From Nautilus pompilius (Eukaryota; Mollusca; Cephalopoda; Nautilida; Nautilidae): a DNA stretch of 64,000 nt. Location: positions 682,001 through 746,000 of the forward strand of contig JACATO010000933.1 of assembly GCA_018389105.1 (NCBI GenBank), read 5' to 3'. The position numbers and the translations under genes were made by a program. The notes under the pieces were generated by a model. The model did not search any database and was not told the DNA's origin. It saw nothing but the letters and a program-made list of their open reading frames with translations. Below are positions 1,618-42,843 of the stretch, piece after piece. Within the stretch, counting starts at the first letter, position 1, and each line of letters starts with the position of its first letter.

Positions 1618-2609
1618 CCAGCTGAAATGTCAGGTATAATCCACATTGCTACTGAAGAACTAGCTGCAGATTACAGTACAAATACCAATGGACCATTAGA
1701 TTCTGGTTTAGAACCACTAGCTGTGTACAAACATTTGTGTATAGATTAGCACATTCATGGCACCAAAATTTACAGATATCAAATGCAGTAGCCTATGATT
1801 GCTCATGTGGAGAGCAGGAAATCCAGAGTCCTGGCATCAGCAAATTGCAAACTGAATTATTGCTTGTCTTAGAAAATGACATTAGTAAGTTTGTGACAAT
1901 GAAGATGCATCTGTGTTCTGTGTAAAAATTTATCTAATGTAATATAATCAGGATTGACATTGTATGGACTTCTTCACCTTGTTCATCTTTAGCCATTAGT
2001 GTTGCCTGTGACAGGATACAACATGTGATGGACACATGCACATACACACAGAAGTTGCAGGCCAAATTTGATAAAGGTCTACATCCAACATGCTTAAAAT
2101 AAGGTTTATTTTCATTTGAAGCAACATTTTATATGTAATCATTTTCACATTTCATGCAAAAATTTCTGTAGCTTTATTCAGCAATGTTTGTGCAACACAA
2201 AATAGGAAATCTGATGGCATCCATGTAATACTCTGTTAATTCAGATAATAGCAAATGTATAATTTCACTGGCATCATATTATTATTCATTTCTTGGAAGG
2301 AGTATTGTGTTTTATAGTGTTCAAATATATGAAGACTAAAAGTCAGCCATTTCTTCATTTCAAGCTAATTGATAAGTTTGTAGAAAATAAAATTAGGCTA
2401 TGGATTGATTCTCTTTCACAAAAAATTTTTTTTTCAAATTATTCATCCTTACAAAAATTAACTGCAACACAACTTTGTACTATTAATAATAATATTATAT
2501 ATTGTTAAAAATGTACAGCAAAGTTCAACATATTTAAATGCACTACATACCTAATGATTACAGTGGACAACAAAATGAAACTTTTTGTCTGCCACTGAGC
2601 AAAATGTGG
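1618..2609. other. Intergenic, nothing recognised
   Basis: AT-rich sequence with only short chance frames. A 71-codon plus-strand frame at 2,293-2,508 has low-complexity composition and no recognisable family. Confidence 0.4.
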
Positions 2610-3850
2610 GTGACCTTAGCTAATTTTTGGGTGCTGATTTCAAATCTGAAGTCAGAATTTGGCTAGGATGTCAGGTTTTTGAGGAATTTCACCACTAACA
2701 CTATATTATGACATGTTATATGAACTATATAAAGTTTGAACAACAATATTTGGTATTCAAATGTTTAATGTGAAACATTTGCCATGATCAGACTGATAAA
2801 AGTAGTATGGAAGATATGGAACACACTTAACTTACATAGTAGGTACATTCCAAATGTTTCAGACACTTGTTCTTGCACTTATGTGAGGTATCAGTCTCCC
2901 TTTGGAGAAACCAACAGTAATCACCCATCATGTTGGGATTTAATTTGCCCTGATATCTACTTTGCATCAACCTTGTGTCTTGGTGGAACCTTTCACCATG
3001 CTCATCACTGACAACCCCTAGATTGGCATCTTGATGTTTTTCCAACCAATGCAGAAAATGCATCTTTAGAGACATCCTGCCCCATTCACTAATATGCCAT
3101 TAGCATGTTTTCCACATACTCAGCATAGTGCTCAGCTCTATATTTGCCAAGAAAGTTCTGTACAACTAAAATAAATGCTTCCCATGCTGCAGACTCTAGT
3201 AGGTTCAGCTTATTTTTTTTTAACCAGTCACCACGCATGAGTTCTTGAATTTCGGTCCCCACAAAAGTTCCTTTGAGTTTAGCTTCACTTTTGTCAGCAC
3301 CAAACTTCTCTCTTAGGTACGTGAAGCCATCACTGTCTTTATTCATGGCTTTGACAAAATTTTTCATAAGGCCGAGTTTGATATGAAGTGACAGAAGGTA
3401 GATATTCTGAGGGTGCAACAATGGCATGTTGCACATTGTACTTGCCAACTATAGGTTCCTGTCTCATAGGCCAGTCTTTTTGAGTGTAATGGTTGGCGGC
3501 ATCACAGCTGTTCCAAAGACACAAGAAATGCATGTAGTTTGTGTACCCTAGCTGCACTCCAAGAGGAGGAGAAATAACTTTGACATCACCACAAATTTTC
3601 CATTTATGATCCAAATAACTCGTCATTTTCAAAAGGAGTTCCATTGACTCGTATGTCTCTTTCAAGCCAATTGCAGGAGCTATAGGAACCAAAGGTTTTT
3701 AGTTACCATGATGTAACAGCAGTTTTAAGGCTTAGTTTACTACAGTCTATGAATAACCTCCATTCATCAGTCACATGCCATAACTAAAAAATGTGACATC
3801 CAAGAGCAAAATGCTTTTCAGATTTGAAATCAGTGTGCAAAATACTACAA
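2610..3850 (-). mobile_element. Unnamed TIR-bounded element, copy 1 (uncharacterised DEHGERFHQD protein)
   Basis: A decayed element of about 1.24 kb. Its left end (about 2,610-2,690) and right end (about 3,784-3,850) are inverted copies of one another; the shared core is CAGATTTGAAATCAG and its complement. The minus strand between them carries pieces of one protein. In order, a segment with EWRLFIDCS lies near 3,750, one with KWKICGDVKV near 3,590 and one with IKLGLMKNFVKAM near 3,370. A segment with DEHGERFHQD, RYQGK and MGDYCW lies at about 2,900-3,010. I recall these phrases from multi-copy uncharacterised invertebrate proteins of about 400 aa, but cannot name a domain or activity. It is an old, broken copy. 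Copy 2 lies at 10,784-12,055 in the opposite orientation. Confidence 0.62.
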
Positions 3851-4440
3851 AGGAAGGGTGATAGTGTTCCGGAGGCAAAATCAATGTTGTTCAGTGTTAT
3901 TGGAAGCAAACCCAAATTAAGGACTTTTACTTATTTAGAACATCAATTATAAATTTTGAAAAATTCAGATGATTACCTAAAATTTTCTGTAAATTATCTG
4001 CAATAATAATAGAAAAACCAATGACTAATTGCTTGTTTTTTTGTTTTGTTTGGAGGAATTCTATTGACTAAATAAACTGACAGCATTTTGACTACTATTT
4101 GATCTTAACCCCACTTTAATTTACTTACTATAGAGATGGTCTTTGATCAGGATTGTCTGCCATCATTTTTATTAGTAGTATCAAATCCTTAGGAGTAAAT
4201 CTACAACATTGACAAAAATCTGTGTAAGTCTTAGTAATGATATGTTCCAATACATCTGTTAATGTGTATTCTGTGATACAATTCTACTGTTTTAGTAAAG
4301 TGTCACATATTCTATTTTTTTTTAAATTTTGGAATGATTCATCGTAGGATGACATAATGAAGATGACTGAACCGTAAGTTGTGTTTGTGTATCATATAGT
4401 ATATTCAGGTGAATGGACATTACAAATGGCAATGAGGATT
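3851..4440. other. Spacer before the Gypsy fossil
   Basis: AT-rich sequence between the unnamed element and the first gag-like sequence. A 5' LTR would be expected here, but I could not match it to the 3' LTR-like block near 10.1-10.6 kb. Confidence 0.35.
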
Positions 4441-10600: not shown

Positions 10601-10783
10601 CCAGAAAATTCTGTTAATCATCATCTGATAACACTCAAATTTTCCAATGTTTTCAGAAACTACTGGTAGGTGATGCCAGCGTATGTCTTATAGATTGCAA
10701 ACAAAGTGTGCATGGTCTTGCATCTGAAATTTCTCCAGTTTTTAGCAATGATCACTGGCCAACATTTTTTTACTTTTTTCCTG

Positions 10784-12055
10784 CTGACTAAGATCTGACA
10801 CTTGTTTTTAACTAATTTTGGGGCACTGATTTAAAAAATAAAATCATTTTTTGCCTATCGCGTCAAGTTTTTGTTCTACAGGATCATTAAATGGTTAACT
10901 TTTTATTTGGTCAACAAGGAGAATACACGAAATATCTGTTTCTTGCGCATGTGGGATAGTAGAGCTAAGGACAAGCATTGGACTCAGAAAAACTGGCCAG
11001 TGAGAACATGCTTAAATGTCAGAGAACTGAATATCAAAAACCAACCACTAGTAGATCAGGTAAAAATCATCTTTCCTACTCTTCAAATCAAACTGGGTCT
11101 AATGAAGCAGTATGTTAAAGCTCTAAGCATAGGTGACTGTTTTAAGTACATATGCACAACATTTCCTAGCCTCAATCATGAAAAAATAAAAGCTGGTATG
11201 TTTGATGGACCATAAATCAGAAAACTGATGAGATCAGTGTTTGACGAGCTCCATGAATGATATGGAGAAAAGAGCATGGAATTCTTTCGTGGCTGTTGTG
11301 AAAAATTTCCTGGGAAACAAAAAAGCTGAAAATTAAAAAGATCTTATTCAAACATTTCTTAAGAATTTTTGTCGTCTAGGTTGCAACATGAGCATAAAGG
11401 TTCATTTTCTCAACAGTCATCTTGATAGATTTCTTGAAAATCTAGGTGACATAAGTGATGAGCAAGGTGAAGGATTCCATTCCATAAAGTTATACAAGCT
11501 AAGGAGGAGTTATACCAAGGAAGGTGGGATACTCACATGATGGCCGATTACTGTTGGAGTATTAAAAGAGACTCTCTGGAAATGAAGCACTCCAGAAAAG
11601 CCTATAATTGAAAATTTAATCCATGAAGGAAGAATGTGTCATTTACTGATATCAGTTAATGTAAATAAACCCATGTCTGTCATCGTTTTGTTTGTATGGT
11701 ATTCTAAATGAAATGATAAGAATATTCTGGATTAGTTTGTGCCCATTTTTGACTAAATTCATTCAATTCTAGCATCGATCTATATTTTGATCTGATGTCA
11801 TAGTTAACCAATATATTTGTTAATCTCAAAATTGATTCATGGTATTGTTTGTTGGAATGGTATTCTAAATAAAATGATAAGAATAGGATTGAGGTGATTG
11901 TGGAAATCATTGTAATTGGGTATTTTTTTATGGCGAGTGATCGAAAATGGGGGTATGCTGTAGAGCAAAAATTTGACATGATAGGCAAAAACCAATGTGA
12001 TATTTGAGTTCAGCACCCCCAAATTAGTCAGAAACAAGTCTCAGATATAAGTCAG
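10784..12055 (+). mobile_element. Unnamed TIR-bounded element, copy 2 (uncharacterised DEHGERFHQD-family protein)
   Basis: A decayed element of about 1.27 kb bounded by inverted repeats of about 98 bp at 10,784-10,881 and 11,958-12,055. Matching blocks include TTTTTGCCTATC, CTACAG and TAATTTTGGGG-like sequence. The plus strand carries the same protein family as copy 1. A segment at 10,871-11,215 contains MWDSRAKDKHW and QIKLGLMKQYVKAL, corresponding to IKLGLMKNFVKAM in copy 1. Further on, about 11,500-11,610, lies RWDTHMMADYCWSIKRDS in the neighbouring frame. Both size and terminal repeats agree with copy 1. The copy is broken. Function is unknown; a mobile or passively moved gene is inference. 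Confidence 0.65.
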
Positions 12056-12059
12056 TAAA

Positions 12060-12690
12060 AATTGTGTTGACCAGTGTTATCAGCCCTTATCTAAGACATC
12101 CTGCTATTATGGATAAAGATATGTTACAAACAAAGTGGACAGAAGAGAAAGCTTGTTGTGTTGACAATAACTTGGAAATTAGACATTATTTGGCAATTGG
12201 ACAAAGGTGAGAAATGTAGCCAAATAAAGGACTCGACATTGGCTCATCAATGAACTAAGGACCAATATTGTGAATTCTTCTGAAAACTGATTGAAGAACA
12301 TGGCTTAACTGCAGCGAACATTTACAGTGCAGATAAAGCAGGACTCTTTTGGCGCTGTTTGCCAACATCAACTCTTGCTGGTGATGAAACTGTTGCTTCA
12401 GGGTTTAAGAACAAGGAACGTTTAACTGTGCTAACCTGTGTTAATGCTGCTGGGGAACACAGAGTTAAGTTGCTTGTGGTTGAAAAGTTTAAGCATCCAA
12501 GAGCTTTTAAAGTTGTTGTTTGCCTGCCAGTTGAGTACAAGGCATGAGCTAATGCATGGATGGATAAAGAAATTTTTCTTTACTGGTTCCACCATGTTTT
12601 TGTTCCATCTGTGAAGAACAATTTGAGGGAACGTGGACTCCCTGGAGATAGATGCCGAGCTCATACTCCAGTTAATTACTATTAACTCAT
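12060..12690 (+). mobile_element. pogo/Tigger-like transposase fragment
   Basis: The plus strand encodes the middle of a CENP-B/jerky/Tigger DDE domain. [11 protein letters not shown] and LPTSTLAG near 12,320-12,375 are followed by [21 protein letters not shown] and HPRAFK (12,400-12,510), then [12 protein letters not shown] near 12,585-12,620. The fragment starts directly after the inverted repeat of the preceding element and ends near 12,690. No DNA-binding domain or C-terminus was found, and no terminal repeats. The reading frame has internal stops, so this is a dead fragment. Confidence 0.78.
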
Positions 12691-22119: not shown

Positions 22120-23250
22120 TACGAGGTCTGTCGAAAAAATATCCGACCTTGGGCTGGGGGAAAAAAAAAATTAAGTACTTGGTGGAGTTCGGTTGCTAAT
22201 CCCCTTCGAAGTAGGCCCCTTGTACCTCCACACACTTAGCCCAGCGATCCTTCCACTGTTCGAAGCACGTCTGGAATGCTTCTTCCCGAATGGCTCTCAG
22301 CTCCGCCGTCACATTCCACATGATGTCCTCTCGGCTCTCAAAGCAGGAGCCTTTCAGTGGCATCTTCATTTTTGGGAACAATCAGAAGTCAGGAGGAGCC
22401 GTGTCTGGAGAGTAGGAAGCCTGGCGAATGAGCGAAATACCTTTCTTTGCCAAGAAACTTTGGATCAGCTGCGACGAATGAGCCGGGGTGTTGTCATGAT
22501 GCAGCTGCCAGTTTTGCGAGGCCCACAGATCCGGTCTCTTGCTCCGAACTGCATCACGAAGACGTTGGAGGACTTCCTGATAGTACCCCTTTGTAACTGT
22601 TTGTCCTTCTGATGCATATTCGTGATGCATAACACCTTGGTAGTCGAAGAAAACAGTCAGCATCACCTTGATTTTGCTCTGGAACTGACGTGCTTTTTTG
22701 GGCCTTGGCGACGTTGGGTGCTTCCACTGTGATGACTGAGCTTTGGTTTCCAGGTCGTACCTGTACACCCACGTCTCATCTCCAGTTATCACGGTATTCT
22801 GGAACTCAGGATCCCTGTTGGCAGTATCCAGCAGGTCCTGCGGAACCTCAAGACGAAGTTGTTGTTGTTCCTGAGAAAGCAGTTTGGGTACAAATTTCGC
22901 TGCCACTCTGCGCAATCCCAAATCCTCCTTTAAAATTGCATGTGCAGAATCTTTACTGATCCAAACCTCGTCACCAATTTGCCGCACCATCAAATGATAA
23001 TCCTCCATCAAGGTTCACACTTTCTTGATAAAAACTGCATTGCGGCTTGTTGACGGCCTCCCGGAACGCTGGTCACTCTCCACCGATGTGCGGCCATCTT
23101 TGAGCCTGTTGTACCATTCATTTATTTGGGTAACACCCATGGCATTGTCACCAAAAGCCTGTTGAATTTTGCAAATTGTTTCCGCTTGGGTATCTCCAAG
23201 TTTTTGGCAAAAGTTGATGAAAGATTGTTGCTCTCACACTATCAATTTTC
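22120..23250 (-). mobile_element. mariner (DD34D) transposon, nearly intact coding region
   Basis: A mariner-family cut-and-paste transposon on the minus strand. The N-terminal helix-turn-helix region runs from about 23,245 to 23,030 (INEWYNRLKDGRTSVESD, SGRPSTSRN). The catalytic domain follows with the DD34D triad: VITGDETWVY, LHHDNTPAHSS and SPDTAPPDF. The C-terminus is KCVEVQGAYFEGD, near 22,200. I see only two premature stops: a TGA within KKV-TLMEDY near 23,020, and one after PPDF near 22,382, where the family has tryptophan. The 3' terminal repeat (ACGAGGTCTGTCGAAAAAAT, 22,121-22,140) follows a TA. No matching 5' terminal repeat was seen, so the 5' end seems truncated near 23,250. Confidence 0.9.
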
Positions 23251-39787: not shown

Positions 39788-42700
39788 ATGGATATTGTTT
39801 TGGATTTTGCTGATCACCATTTCCTTTCCCCCTATGTGTATCCTGCATCTTGGCCAGAAAAGAATGTTCTGCGACAGATCTGCAGTCTCCTTCTGATTGC
39901 CAATGTGGGTGCTTACATCTTGTATCTACTTACAGCCTCTCTCAGCTACCACTTTATCTTTGATCAACGCCTTATGAAACATCCACAGTTCTTAAAAGTA
40001 AATATTAGCTCCTTTTTTGTGAGGAGCTTTCTTTATTATAATTGTTTAAGCTATTTATGGAATCTTCTCAGTGGTGCTACAACTGTTTAATTATAAATTA
40101 TAATACATGACTGGCATAGCCCATTTTATATGTATGAATTGTTTCTATATTGTCGCTCTTTTTCATATATCCTTTCTATCATTGATTTGTCTGCCACTGT
40201 AACTGACCCTAATATCAGCAACCATAACTCCGTCTGAAGACATACGGGTAACTAACCCTGGTATCAGTTTCCTCTCTAAATACACACAGGTATACTGCAT
40301 CTTCGCTGTAACAAACTGTATAGTTTGCTATCTGCAAAGGAAGATCATTAGAAATGTCAGATATGTTAAGGCAAGAGAGAGCTTTAAAGATTAAATTTTT
40401 AATGAATGATTTCCTCATTTGCATTTCAGAAGAAAAAGGCTCCAATTCCTTCCAAATTCTGGATTTTTTAATATATACATATGTATTTTCTGAGTAGATT
40501 GTTGTTTTTTTTTTAAATTTCAGGCAAACAAACTTAACTTTCTTGACTTTTTTTTTTTTTTTTTTGCTCTCTTGCTGAAAACTTGAAATTCAAAAAAGGA
40601 AAAAAAAAATCACTTCCATTTATGGAATTGTCTCTTTCAGAATCAGATCCAGCTTGAAATAATGTGCACTGTCAAATCCATTCCCCTAATGAGTATTCCA
40701 ACAGTGGCCATGTTTTTTCTGGAGATCCGAGGCTACTCCAAGTTGTACGACAGTGTGGCTGACACCAGATTAGGTAAGGAGAAAAAAAAATCTTTTGAGA
40801 ACAAGGTAGGCCCATTTAATAAAAACGACAATGTGCTGTTTTAACCCCTTTTGGTGCTGTTTGATCCATTTGAGTTAAAAGATTTTTCCCAACTCCAGTT
40901 GTCTGCACTTTTGTGTTCTCGTAAATACACTGGTTTTTCCAAAAGTTTGAACATGTCCAGGAGATTTTGTTTTGAAGATTTGGTGAATATAACTCATTCC
41001 ATAAAACAACTTTTATAGAAGAAACACGTAAATTATAAATAACCTTTAGGGGGATTAAAGGGGAAACAAGCTGGACGAAATCAGAAAACAAAAATGGATT
41101 AGAGGTAGTTGTCAGGTGGGTTTGGTCCCCTCCCTACTTACATGATTCGCAATAAACTGCTCATAACCATATCCACAAAGTCCATTGTCTTATCAGAGAA
41201 GTTTGCATTTCTTGGAGAGAAGTAGCATGTATTCCTAGAGGATCCCAAACATTCTCAACAGAATTTGGCTCAAAATATGCTTGGTTTGATCTTGAAGATG
41301 TTCGTTAATTACACGTGCCCTATGTGGATGAGCCATTAACATAAACTCCAATTGCACATGCACATTCCCTCCAGACAAGTACATGCTGTGAGTTACTTTG
41401 AAGACAAAATCTTGTCTTATCAGTAATAAGCACATGGCTCCAGTGACATGATATCCATGACATTATGGCGTTTGGTCAGAGAGAATACTCACTATGGGTA
41501 GTCTTGCATTAAATGCTCTTTAATGCAGCCCCCAGCATATGGTTGGAGCTGATACTAATCTTCCTGTTGGGGAGGAACACATAAACAGTTGGGTTGAAGT
41601 TCTGCTCTGCCAAGCCAAGCAAGACAACAATCAGCTTGGGATTGTGACTTGTGGATAACCTTAAACTAGTCTTCAAACAATATCTCCATAACCAAGAAAC
41701 CAATCTTGTATTCACATTTAGCCATTCTATGACTGTTCAGCCTATATCCTACCAATAACTCTTCACCTTAGAGATTCTTCCAAACAACTGCAGCTAACCA
41801 TTTTCTAACACAAGGATTAGTAGACCACCAAGCTAAGCATTTAAGAAAACAAAAATTTCTTTTTATAATTCAAAATAGTATATATTTTAATTCATAGAAT
41901 TATTTATTATAACATTTCGTTGAATCCACTGCCATTTCTGCCATTTTACTGAGATTCTTTGGAGTGCCTAGACAGTGCTAAAGAAATCCATTTTCATTTG
42001 GAAACTGCATATATTTATTTTCACAAGAATTTAAGTCAAATAAATCTTTTTATATTCCCATCCCAATTGTTTGGTTGTAATTGAAAAAGAAAAGGAAACA
42101 CTTGAAGGTGTATTCTGTGTTTGATGTTCTGTCCAAATGTAAAGCTGAGGACATTCTTTGTCAGCCCCTTGGGTGCTGTATAAGGTGTGAACTGTTTGAC
42201 CTTGGGTAAGACTTAAGGCTAAGTGTCATTCATTGTGCAGCACTGTTTTTCTTTTCATCTTGTAGTAAAACAGCAGTACATAATTACCAGATTTCTTATT
42301 ATTGCAGGTTGGTTTGGAGTGGTTGGCAGTGTCATCACATTCGTTCTGTTCACAGATATGTGCATCTATTGGATACATCGCTACCTCCATCACAAGCTTG
42401 TGTATAAACACTTGCACAAGTCTCACCATAAGTGGAAAATCCCCACCCCCTTTGCCAGCCATGCCTTCCATCCCATTGATGGATTTCTCCAGAGTGTACC
42501 TTATCACATCTACCCTTTTCTGTTCCCTCTTCATAAATTAACTTACTTGGGGCTGTTTGTGTTTGTGAATGTGTGGACTGTATCCATCCATGATGGTGAC
42601 TATCGTGTACCAGACATCATAAAACCATTTATCAATGGTTCTGCCCATCATATGGATCATCACATCTTTTATAATTACAACTATGGACAATTTTTCACAC

Positions 42701-42843
42701 TCTGGGACCACATTGGAGGATCTTTCAGAAACCCAAGCTCATATGAAGGTTGTGGACCCCTGGATTACATACTGAAACGCAAAAAACTTAAAAAGCAAAA
42801 AAATGAAGCATCTTTCTTGCTGAATAGAAAGAAAAACAACTAA
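39788..42843 (+). CDS. SC5D: Lathosterol oxidase / C5-sterol desaturase
   Basis: SC5D introduces the C5-C6 double bond into lathosterol to give 7-dehydrocholesterol, using a di-iron centre, O2 and cytochrome b5 in the ER membrane. Coding exons: 39,788-39,997 (70 codons, phase 0, donor GTAAAT), 40,641-40,773 (phase 1, donor GTAAGG) and 42,308-42,843. The 292 aa compare with about 299 in human. The fatty-acid hydroxylase domain shows all three histidine boxes: H138-RYL-H142, H151-KS-HH155 and H229-MD-HH233. [10 protein letters not shown] and [10 protein letters not shown] are hallmarks of the lathosterol oxidase branch. Hydrophobic segments lie at about 33-55, 76-95, 117-137 and 183-205. The C-terminus ends KKNN, a KKXX ER-retrieval signal. 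The start is the first ATG after an upstream acceptor. Intron 2 holds a Tc1 remnant. All residues seem intact. Arthropods and nematodes largely lack sterol synthesis, so an intact SC5D fits a mollusc or another sterol-capable animal. Confidence 0.97.
41090..41830 (-). mobile_element. Tc1-like transposase remnant in SC5D intron 2
   Basis: On the minus strand [20 protein letters not shown] (near 41,440-41,380) matches the Tc1 WSDESRF region. [15 protein letters not shown] (near 41,340-41,290) matches DNARPHRARVxNEYL, and ENVWDPLG (near 41,250) matches the PIEHVWDxLG motif. It lies antisense to SC5D within intron 2 and is broken by stops and frame changes. The ends were not resolved. Confidence 0.75.

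What the first reader, a model, noticed from the sequence alone, without database searches (positions are those of the whole stretch)
10784..12055. A small TIR element carrying an unnamed protein family (copy 2)
Seen: inverted repeats of about 98 bp bracket about 1.1 kb encoding a protein that shares phrases with the minus-strand sequence at 2.6-3.85 kb. The terminal repeats of the two copies are themselves similar and their sizes agree (about 1.24 and 1.27 kb). That is how a mobile unit looks, not a host gene. The protein (IKLGLMKxFVKAL, DEHGERFHQD, DYCWxxKRD) matches no transposase class I know. Inference: either a new kind of DNA transposon with an unrecognised nuclease, or a non-autonomous unit that captured a gene.
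Basis: partly seen in the sequence, partly recalled or inferred. Interest (0 to 1): 0.78.

Follow-up and report, generated by a model that had tools for sequence, protein, structure and literature searches.

The report
Shortened Chapaev3 jumping gene copies
The two repeats are worn, shortened copies of a known kind of cut-and-paste jumping gene (Chapaev3) that is abundant in this genome and still carries a piece of its own transposase; it is ordinary, although some longer relatives in the same genome look very young.

Summary
Copy 1 is 2561-3896 (1,336 bp). One 101-bp arm matched 40 of 40 scored places in the 728-Mb home genome; 20 of 20 fetched places align to one ~1.3-kb unit. Termini are CACTGG...CCAGTG. 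An exact 3-bp duplication shows in 27 of 47 end-paired loci, each TWA, mostly between A and T. Uninterrupted sites exist for both window copies, with one ATTAT in those read. The coding part is the C-terminal half of the element's own transposase: intact or near-intact relatives are 2.2-2.3 kb with 539-617-residue frames and the motifs C(2)C, LH and H(4)H. These are the published hallmarks of Chapaev3 (CMC group; PMC4079192). The short family lacks the zinc-domain part and the first catalytic Asp, so it is a non-autonomous deletion derivative, not a new class and not gene capture. Pfam and NCBIfam had no model for the relatives scanned. I could not compare with Repbase proteins or obtain a fold. 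Relatives with 98-100% identical copies suggest recent activity.

The parts
10753..12076 (+). copy 2: non-autonomous Chapaev3-type element with both ends, 1,324 bp, CACTGG...CCAGTG
   Evidence: common start and end in alignments of 20 genomic copies (L009 lacks clear ends); 93% identical to the L065 copy from end to end
10753..10884 (+). left terminal inverted repeat of copy 2
   Evidence: left 1-132 pairs with right 1-122, 79% over 122 aligned bases
11955..12076 (-). right terminal inverted repeat of copy 2
12077..12079 (.). TTA target duplication, right side; the left side reads GAT. 6 of 6 uninterrupted sites that were read have TGATTATC (one ATTAT), so the left side has most simply lost TA after insertion
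10889..11667 (+). remnant of the C-terminal half of the transposase, with frameshifts and stops
   Evidence: aligns with L063 positions 1240-2014 at 71% over 754 bases; translations
11687..11902 (+). 55-nt direct repeat (11687-11741 and 11848-11902, 80%) in the non-coding 3' part of the element; cross-hits in 18 of 20 loci (not L007, L012)
2561..3896 (-). copy 1: a related, diverged element, 1,336 bp
   Evidence: ends and duplication; subfamily mates among L021-L050
2558..2560 (.). TTA target duplication of copy 1, one side (preceded by A)
   Evidence: uninterrupted paralogous site with a single ATTAT at C1346:168244-168356
3897..3899 (.). TTA target duplication of copy 1, other side (followed by T)
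2827..3765 (-). remnant of the transposase in copy 1, from the first-Asp region (WRLFID) to the C-terminus, broken by frameshifts and stops; approximate limits
   Evidence: translations; ORFs

Best explanation
The finding is one copy of a high-copy, non-autonomous family of Chapaev3-type (CMC group) cut-and-paste DNA transposons. By comparison with intact relatives, an ancestral element of about 2.3 kb lost the 5' part of its transposase gene (N-terminal Cys/His-rich domain and first catalytic Asp), from the inner edge of the left TIR to the second catalytic Asp. The 1.3-kb remainder kept both TIRs. A full-length transposase supplied in trans by an autonomous relative would bind the TIRs, excise the element and reinsert it at A-TWA-T, duplicating TWA. 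Shown: ends, TIRs, target duplication, uninterrupted sites, absence of the 5' coding part, motif set, intact ~2.3-kb relatives. Inferred: the deletion event (the exact parent was not found), trans-mobilisation, the DDE assignment and the cut-and-paste chemistry (from the superfamily).
For: 20 of 20 loci fetched with the arm align to one ~1.3-kb unit; 19 of 20 have both ends within 2 mismatches in all (L009 does not). Exact 3-bp duplications: 11 of 20 and 16 of 27 paired loci. Where both flanks read TWA, the middle base agrees in 27 of 31 (25 of 29 if two pairs of loci with shared flanks are counted once); no 4-bp duplication in either set. The base before is A in 16/20 and 23/27, the base after is T in 16/20 and 25/27. 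Uninterrupted sites: one for copy 1 at 88% (read); 40 of 40 scored places (89 candidates) at 84-90% for copy 2, of which 6 were read and 6 of 6 have a single ATTAT. Relatives with both ends and TAA duplications: L052 2,178 bp with a 539-aa ORF, L063 2,307 bp with a 582-codon frame. C(2)C, LH, H(4)H and acidic positions invariant. These match the published hallmarks.
Against: No Pfam, NCBIfam or PDB sequence match supports the class. No Chapaev3 protein sequence was available for alignment or a tree. Copy 2's own left flank lacks the duplication. Several long-ORF relatives (L053-L061) gave no convincing pair of ends with the simple motif, so not every relative was shown to lie in an element. 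The full-length parent of copy 2's family was not found: the nearest full-length transposase examined is 69% identical over the shared part (L063). The duplication count alone does not exceed shuffles of the flanks clearly (11 against a maximum of 12, 16 against 17 in 2,000 shuffles each), because nearly all sites are TWA. No fold was predicted.
Confidence: 0.9

Rival explanations
1. A new superfamily of DNA transposon, unrelated to CMC, that shares CAC termini and TWA sites by convergence.
For: No Pfam or NCBIfam model matches the relatives scanned above its cut-off, and no PDB sequence matches L051.
Against: Termini, TWA between A and T, ~2.3-kb size, protein length and three ordered motifs all match the published Chapaev3 description (against 30, 34, 38, 46, 53).
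Confidence: 0.05
2. A non-autonomous unit that captured a host gene.
For: The open frame of the short family runs straight out of the TIR and lacks the start of a transposase (L065).
Against: The same protein occurs full length inside elements with the same kind of ends (L052, L063), and copy 2 aligns with L063 from just inside the TIR through the coding region, so it is the element's own gene.
Confidence: 0.02
3. The truncated frame has been kept by selection, for example as a repressor or accessory protein made by the short elements.
For: 4 of the 7 short-family rows (the best scoring) have no stop in the match, with frames of 253-271 codons (L065-L068). Second codon positions differ less (4.9%) than first and third (6.7 and 6.5%) over 23 copies, a weak hint of constraint.
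Against: No excess at third positions over first. In the 20 loci fetched with the arm the longest stop-free frame is 101-250 codons, so 0 of 20 keep the 270-codon frame.
Confidence: 0.06

Closest known systems
Chapaev3 transposons (Garfield, Merrow, Conan; CMC group), PMC4079192
   Same: CAC/GTG termini, TWA duplication between A and T, 2,289-bp full element (Garfield_BM), 556-aa transposase with C(2)C, LH and H(4)H, internal-deletion derivatives (passages, section 14)
   Different: the derivatives here (1.3 and 1.75 kb) keep much of the transposase, whereas the paper describes MITEs, which it calls generally under 600 bp; identity to Garfield, Merrow or Conan was not measured; the Garfield and Merrow transposases have two exons, L063 and L052 one open frame
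Transib / RAG1 and Chapaev sensu stricto (PMC4411706, passages)
   Same: that paper groups Chapaev3 with these and reports an N-terminal Chapa zinc domain; the intact proteins here have a Cys/His-rich N-terminus
   Different: no Pfam RAG1 match in the proteins scanned; the duplication is 3 bp (Transib's 5 bp is recalled)
PIF-Harbinger (recalled)
   Same: TWA target duplication
   Different: no DDE_Tnp_4 match in Pfam; CAC/GTG termini and the CMC motif set

Membership tests
Chapaev3 (CMC) | termini 5'-CAC ... GTG-3' | tested here: met
   CACTGG...CCAGTG within 2 mismatches in all over the two 12-base ends in 19 of 20 loci of copy 2's family; window copy 1 has CAGTGG at its plus-strand left end
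Chapaev3 (CMC) | 3-bp TWA duplication inserted between A and T | tested here: met
   11/20 and 16/27 exact; middle base agrees in 27 of 31; uninterrupted sites with a single ATTAT
Chapaev3 (CMC) | transposase motifs C(2)C, LH, H(4)H | tested here: met
   C390/C393, L438-H439, H548/H553 (L051 numbering) invariant in 4 of 4 ORFs; also in L063 and L064. In window copy 2 itself the C(2)C part is decayed
Chapaev3 (CMC) | DDE catalytic triad | tested here: inconclusive
   invariant D317, D371 and E567/E570 of L051 are candidates by position; no structure. The short family lacks the first
Chapaev3 (CMC) | N-terminal Chapa zinc domain | tested here: inconclusive
   Cys/His-rich N-terminus in L051, L052 (with a gap) and L063, not compared with any Chapa sequence
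Chapaev3 (CMC) | clusters with Repbase Chapaev3 transposases in a tree | not testable with these tools
   no Repbase sequences held
CACTA (Transposase_21) | match to PF02992 | tested here: not met
   no match for the 4 ORFs scanned; the genome search is uninformative because its controls did not ring
RAG1/Transib | match to PF12940; 5-bp duplication (recalled) | tested here: not met
   the genome search is uninformative, its controls did not ring
PIF-Harbinger | DDE_Tnp_4-type transposase (recalled) | tested here: not met
   no such Pfam match for the 4 ORFs scanned

The most novel reading that the evidence does not exclude
This genome holds currently active Chapaev3 families in which deletion derivatives that still encode a partial transposase (354 codons with all three acidic residues but no zinc domain, or 270 codons without the first Asp) multiply alongside the full elements, and their products regulate transposition in trans.
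Probability: 0.07. Interest if true: 0.45.

Novelty: new member of a known kind. Interest (0 to 1): 0.2.

Why it matters
It removes a candidate new transposon class. It also shows that an abundant transposase family had no Pfam or NCBIfam match for the members scanned, so automated annotation may leave its genes unnamed. The near-identical full-length copies make a possible natural test bed for the little-studied CMC/Chapaev3 chemistry.

Tried and rejected
Profile searches of window pieces and of intact or near-intact relatives in Pfam, NCBIfam and PDB sequences (L051 only) gave nothing above a cut-off; the few weak hits (best E 0.013, GRAS) are not taken as evidence. Pfam Transposase_21 and RAG1 searches of the genome were uninformative because the controls did not ring either. 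A search for papers holding all four of HGERFHQD, terminal inverted repeats, transposase and superfamily found 0. Papers: PMC4079192 (passages and section 14), PMC4411706 and PMC3630058 (passages); the rest were seen as listings only. Yuan and Wessler 2011 is not held; its motifs are taken as quoted in PMC4079192. Gene capture was dropped after L052 and L063. Selection on the truncated frame was tested by codon position and open-frame length and not supported.

Full report
Observation. The window is G000:C889:682001-746000 of a 728-Mb genome in 2,558 contigs. The TIR alignment score of 61 lies well above 300 random pairs at the same spacing (maximum 30). Used as a query, the 101-bp left arm gave 502 first-look candidates; 40 were scored and the 40 matches are 92-100% identical. 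All 20 fetched loci align to the same unit, starting at window 10753 and ending at 12076, with aligned lengths of 1,213-1,363 bp. L009 lacks clear ends, and L013 and L019 have internal gaps. Copy 1 is 2561-3896.

Ends and target sites. The termini are CACTGG...CCAGTG. I paired ends in 20 of 20 loci of copy 2's family (L009 poorly, 5 mismatches) and in 27 of 30 fetched loci of copy 1's family (none for L022, L025, L035; five more are poor). Exact 3-bp duplications occur in 11 of 20 and 16 of 27, against 5.9 and 9.7 when right flanks are shuffled among copies. The shuffle maxima in 2,000 rounds were 12 and 17, because nearly all sites are TWA, so this test alone is weak. The stronger test is whether the middle base agrees when both flanks read TWA: 27 of 31, binomial P = 1.7e-5. 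Two pairs of loci (L028/L031, L043/L045) share flanks; counted once, the figure is 25 of 29. No duplication of 4 bp was seen. The neighbours are A before (16/20, 23/27) and T after (16/20, 25/27). Joined flanks of copy 1 match an uninterrupted place at 88% that holds a single ATTAT. Joined flanks of copy 2, with one base of overlap that I assumed, match 40 of 40 scored uninterrupted places at 84-90% (89 candidates), because copy 2 sits inside another repeat. I read six of these forty; 6 of 6 have TGATTATC, a single ATTAT. Copy 2's left flank reads GAT before the element and its right flank TTAT after it, so the left side has most simply lost TA since insertion.

The protein. A search of the home genome with a read-through of copy 1 gave 6,892 first-look candidates, 130 scored, 140 matches. 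Relatives with long open frames are L051 617 aa, L052 539 aa, L053 514 aa and L054 479 aa, and L063 with 582 codons. L052 lies in a 2,178-bp element and L063 in a 2,307-bp element, each with ends of the same kind and TAA duplications flanked by A and T. L051 has ends 2,294 bp apart, the first base or two of one of them changed. L053-L061 gave no convincing pair of ends with this simple motif, so not every relative was shown to lie in an element. The alignment of four ORFs has invariant C(2)C, LH and H(4)H and candidate acidic positions; L063 and L064 keep them.

Structure of the short family. The best short copies (L065, L066) have a 270-codon frame that runs out of the left TIR and becomes transposase at the second Asp: residue 23 of L065, an Asp, aligns with D334 of L063. 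Copy 2 aligns with L063 from just inside the TIR (position 137) at 71% over 754 bases. The N-terminal domain and the first Asp are absent. Differences from L065 over 23 copies by codon position are 405/6040, 293/6044 and 394/6040. There is no third-position excess over first; the second position is somewhat lower, a weak hint of constraint. None of the 20 arm-fetched loci keeps the 270-codon frame (longest 101-250 codons). The frame therefore decays nearly like neutral sequence. The nearest full-length transposase examined (L063) is 69% identical over the shared part; the partial L062 is also at 69% and the 354-codon L064 at 66%. The true parent was not found.

Comparison. PMC4079192 (passages and section 14) describes Chapaev3: CAC/GTG termini, TWA duplications between A and T, a 2,289-bp element with a 556-aa transposase (Garfield_BM), motifs C(2)C, LH and H(4)H, and internal-deletion derivatives. 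These match. PMC4411706 (passages) reports an N-terminal Chapa zinc domain in Chapaev3; the Cys/His-rich N-terminus here is compatible but was not tested against it. I could not test sequence membership against Repbase, hence 0.9 rather than certainty. Pfam (4 ORFs) and NCBIfam (3 ORFs) gave no match above a cut-off.

Activity. For L063, 40 of 1,658 first-look candidates were scored; 37 of the 40 are full length at 98-100% identity. For the 1,752-bp derivative L064, 40 of 932 candidates were scored; 39 are full length, one covers 1-1749, and all 40 are 100% as rounded. Only the best candidates are scored, so these lists favour young copies; still, such identity means recent movement. Copy 2's own family is older: identities to L065 are mostly 90-95%, with L007 at 81% and parts of L013 and L019 at 83-89%.

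Verdict. A new member of a known kind: a non-autonomous Chapaev3-type transposon, ordinary as a class.

Noticed in passing
L064 (G000:C21:468323-470074): A 1,752-bp Chapaev3-type derivative with a 354-codon frame keeping all three candidate acidic residues but not the zinc domain; 40 of 40 scored copies (932 candidates) are 100% identical as rounded, so very recent amplification. The flanks of L064 itself differ (TAA / TTA).
   Followed up: partly
L063 (G000:C346:368671-370977): Full-length 2,307-bp Chapaev3-type element; 37 of 40 scored copies are full length at 98-100% identity, and five rows show the 582-codon frame without a stop.
   Followed up: partly
window about 10680-10752 and 12077-12640: Copy 2 is inserted in another repeat (40 of 40 scored places uninterrupted); its translation looks like a pogo/Tigger-type transposase, a label recalled and not from a call; limits approximate.
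   Followed up: partly
window 22382-23011, minus strand: Mariner-type transposase fragment (Pfam Transposase_1, E 3e-17) in the most GC-rich 4-kb step of the window (41%).
   Followed up: no
window 42223-42843, plus strand: Fatty acid hydroxylase domain in a 206-aa ORF (PF04116, E 5e-25); host gene exon or retrocopy, not examined.
   Followed up: no
window 11687-11902: 55-nt direct repeat with copies 161 bp apart inside copy 2; cross-hits in 18 of 20 loci of the family; role unknown.
   Followed up: no
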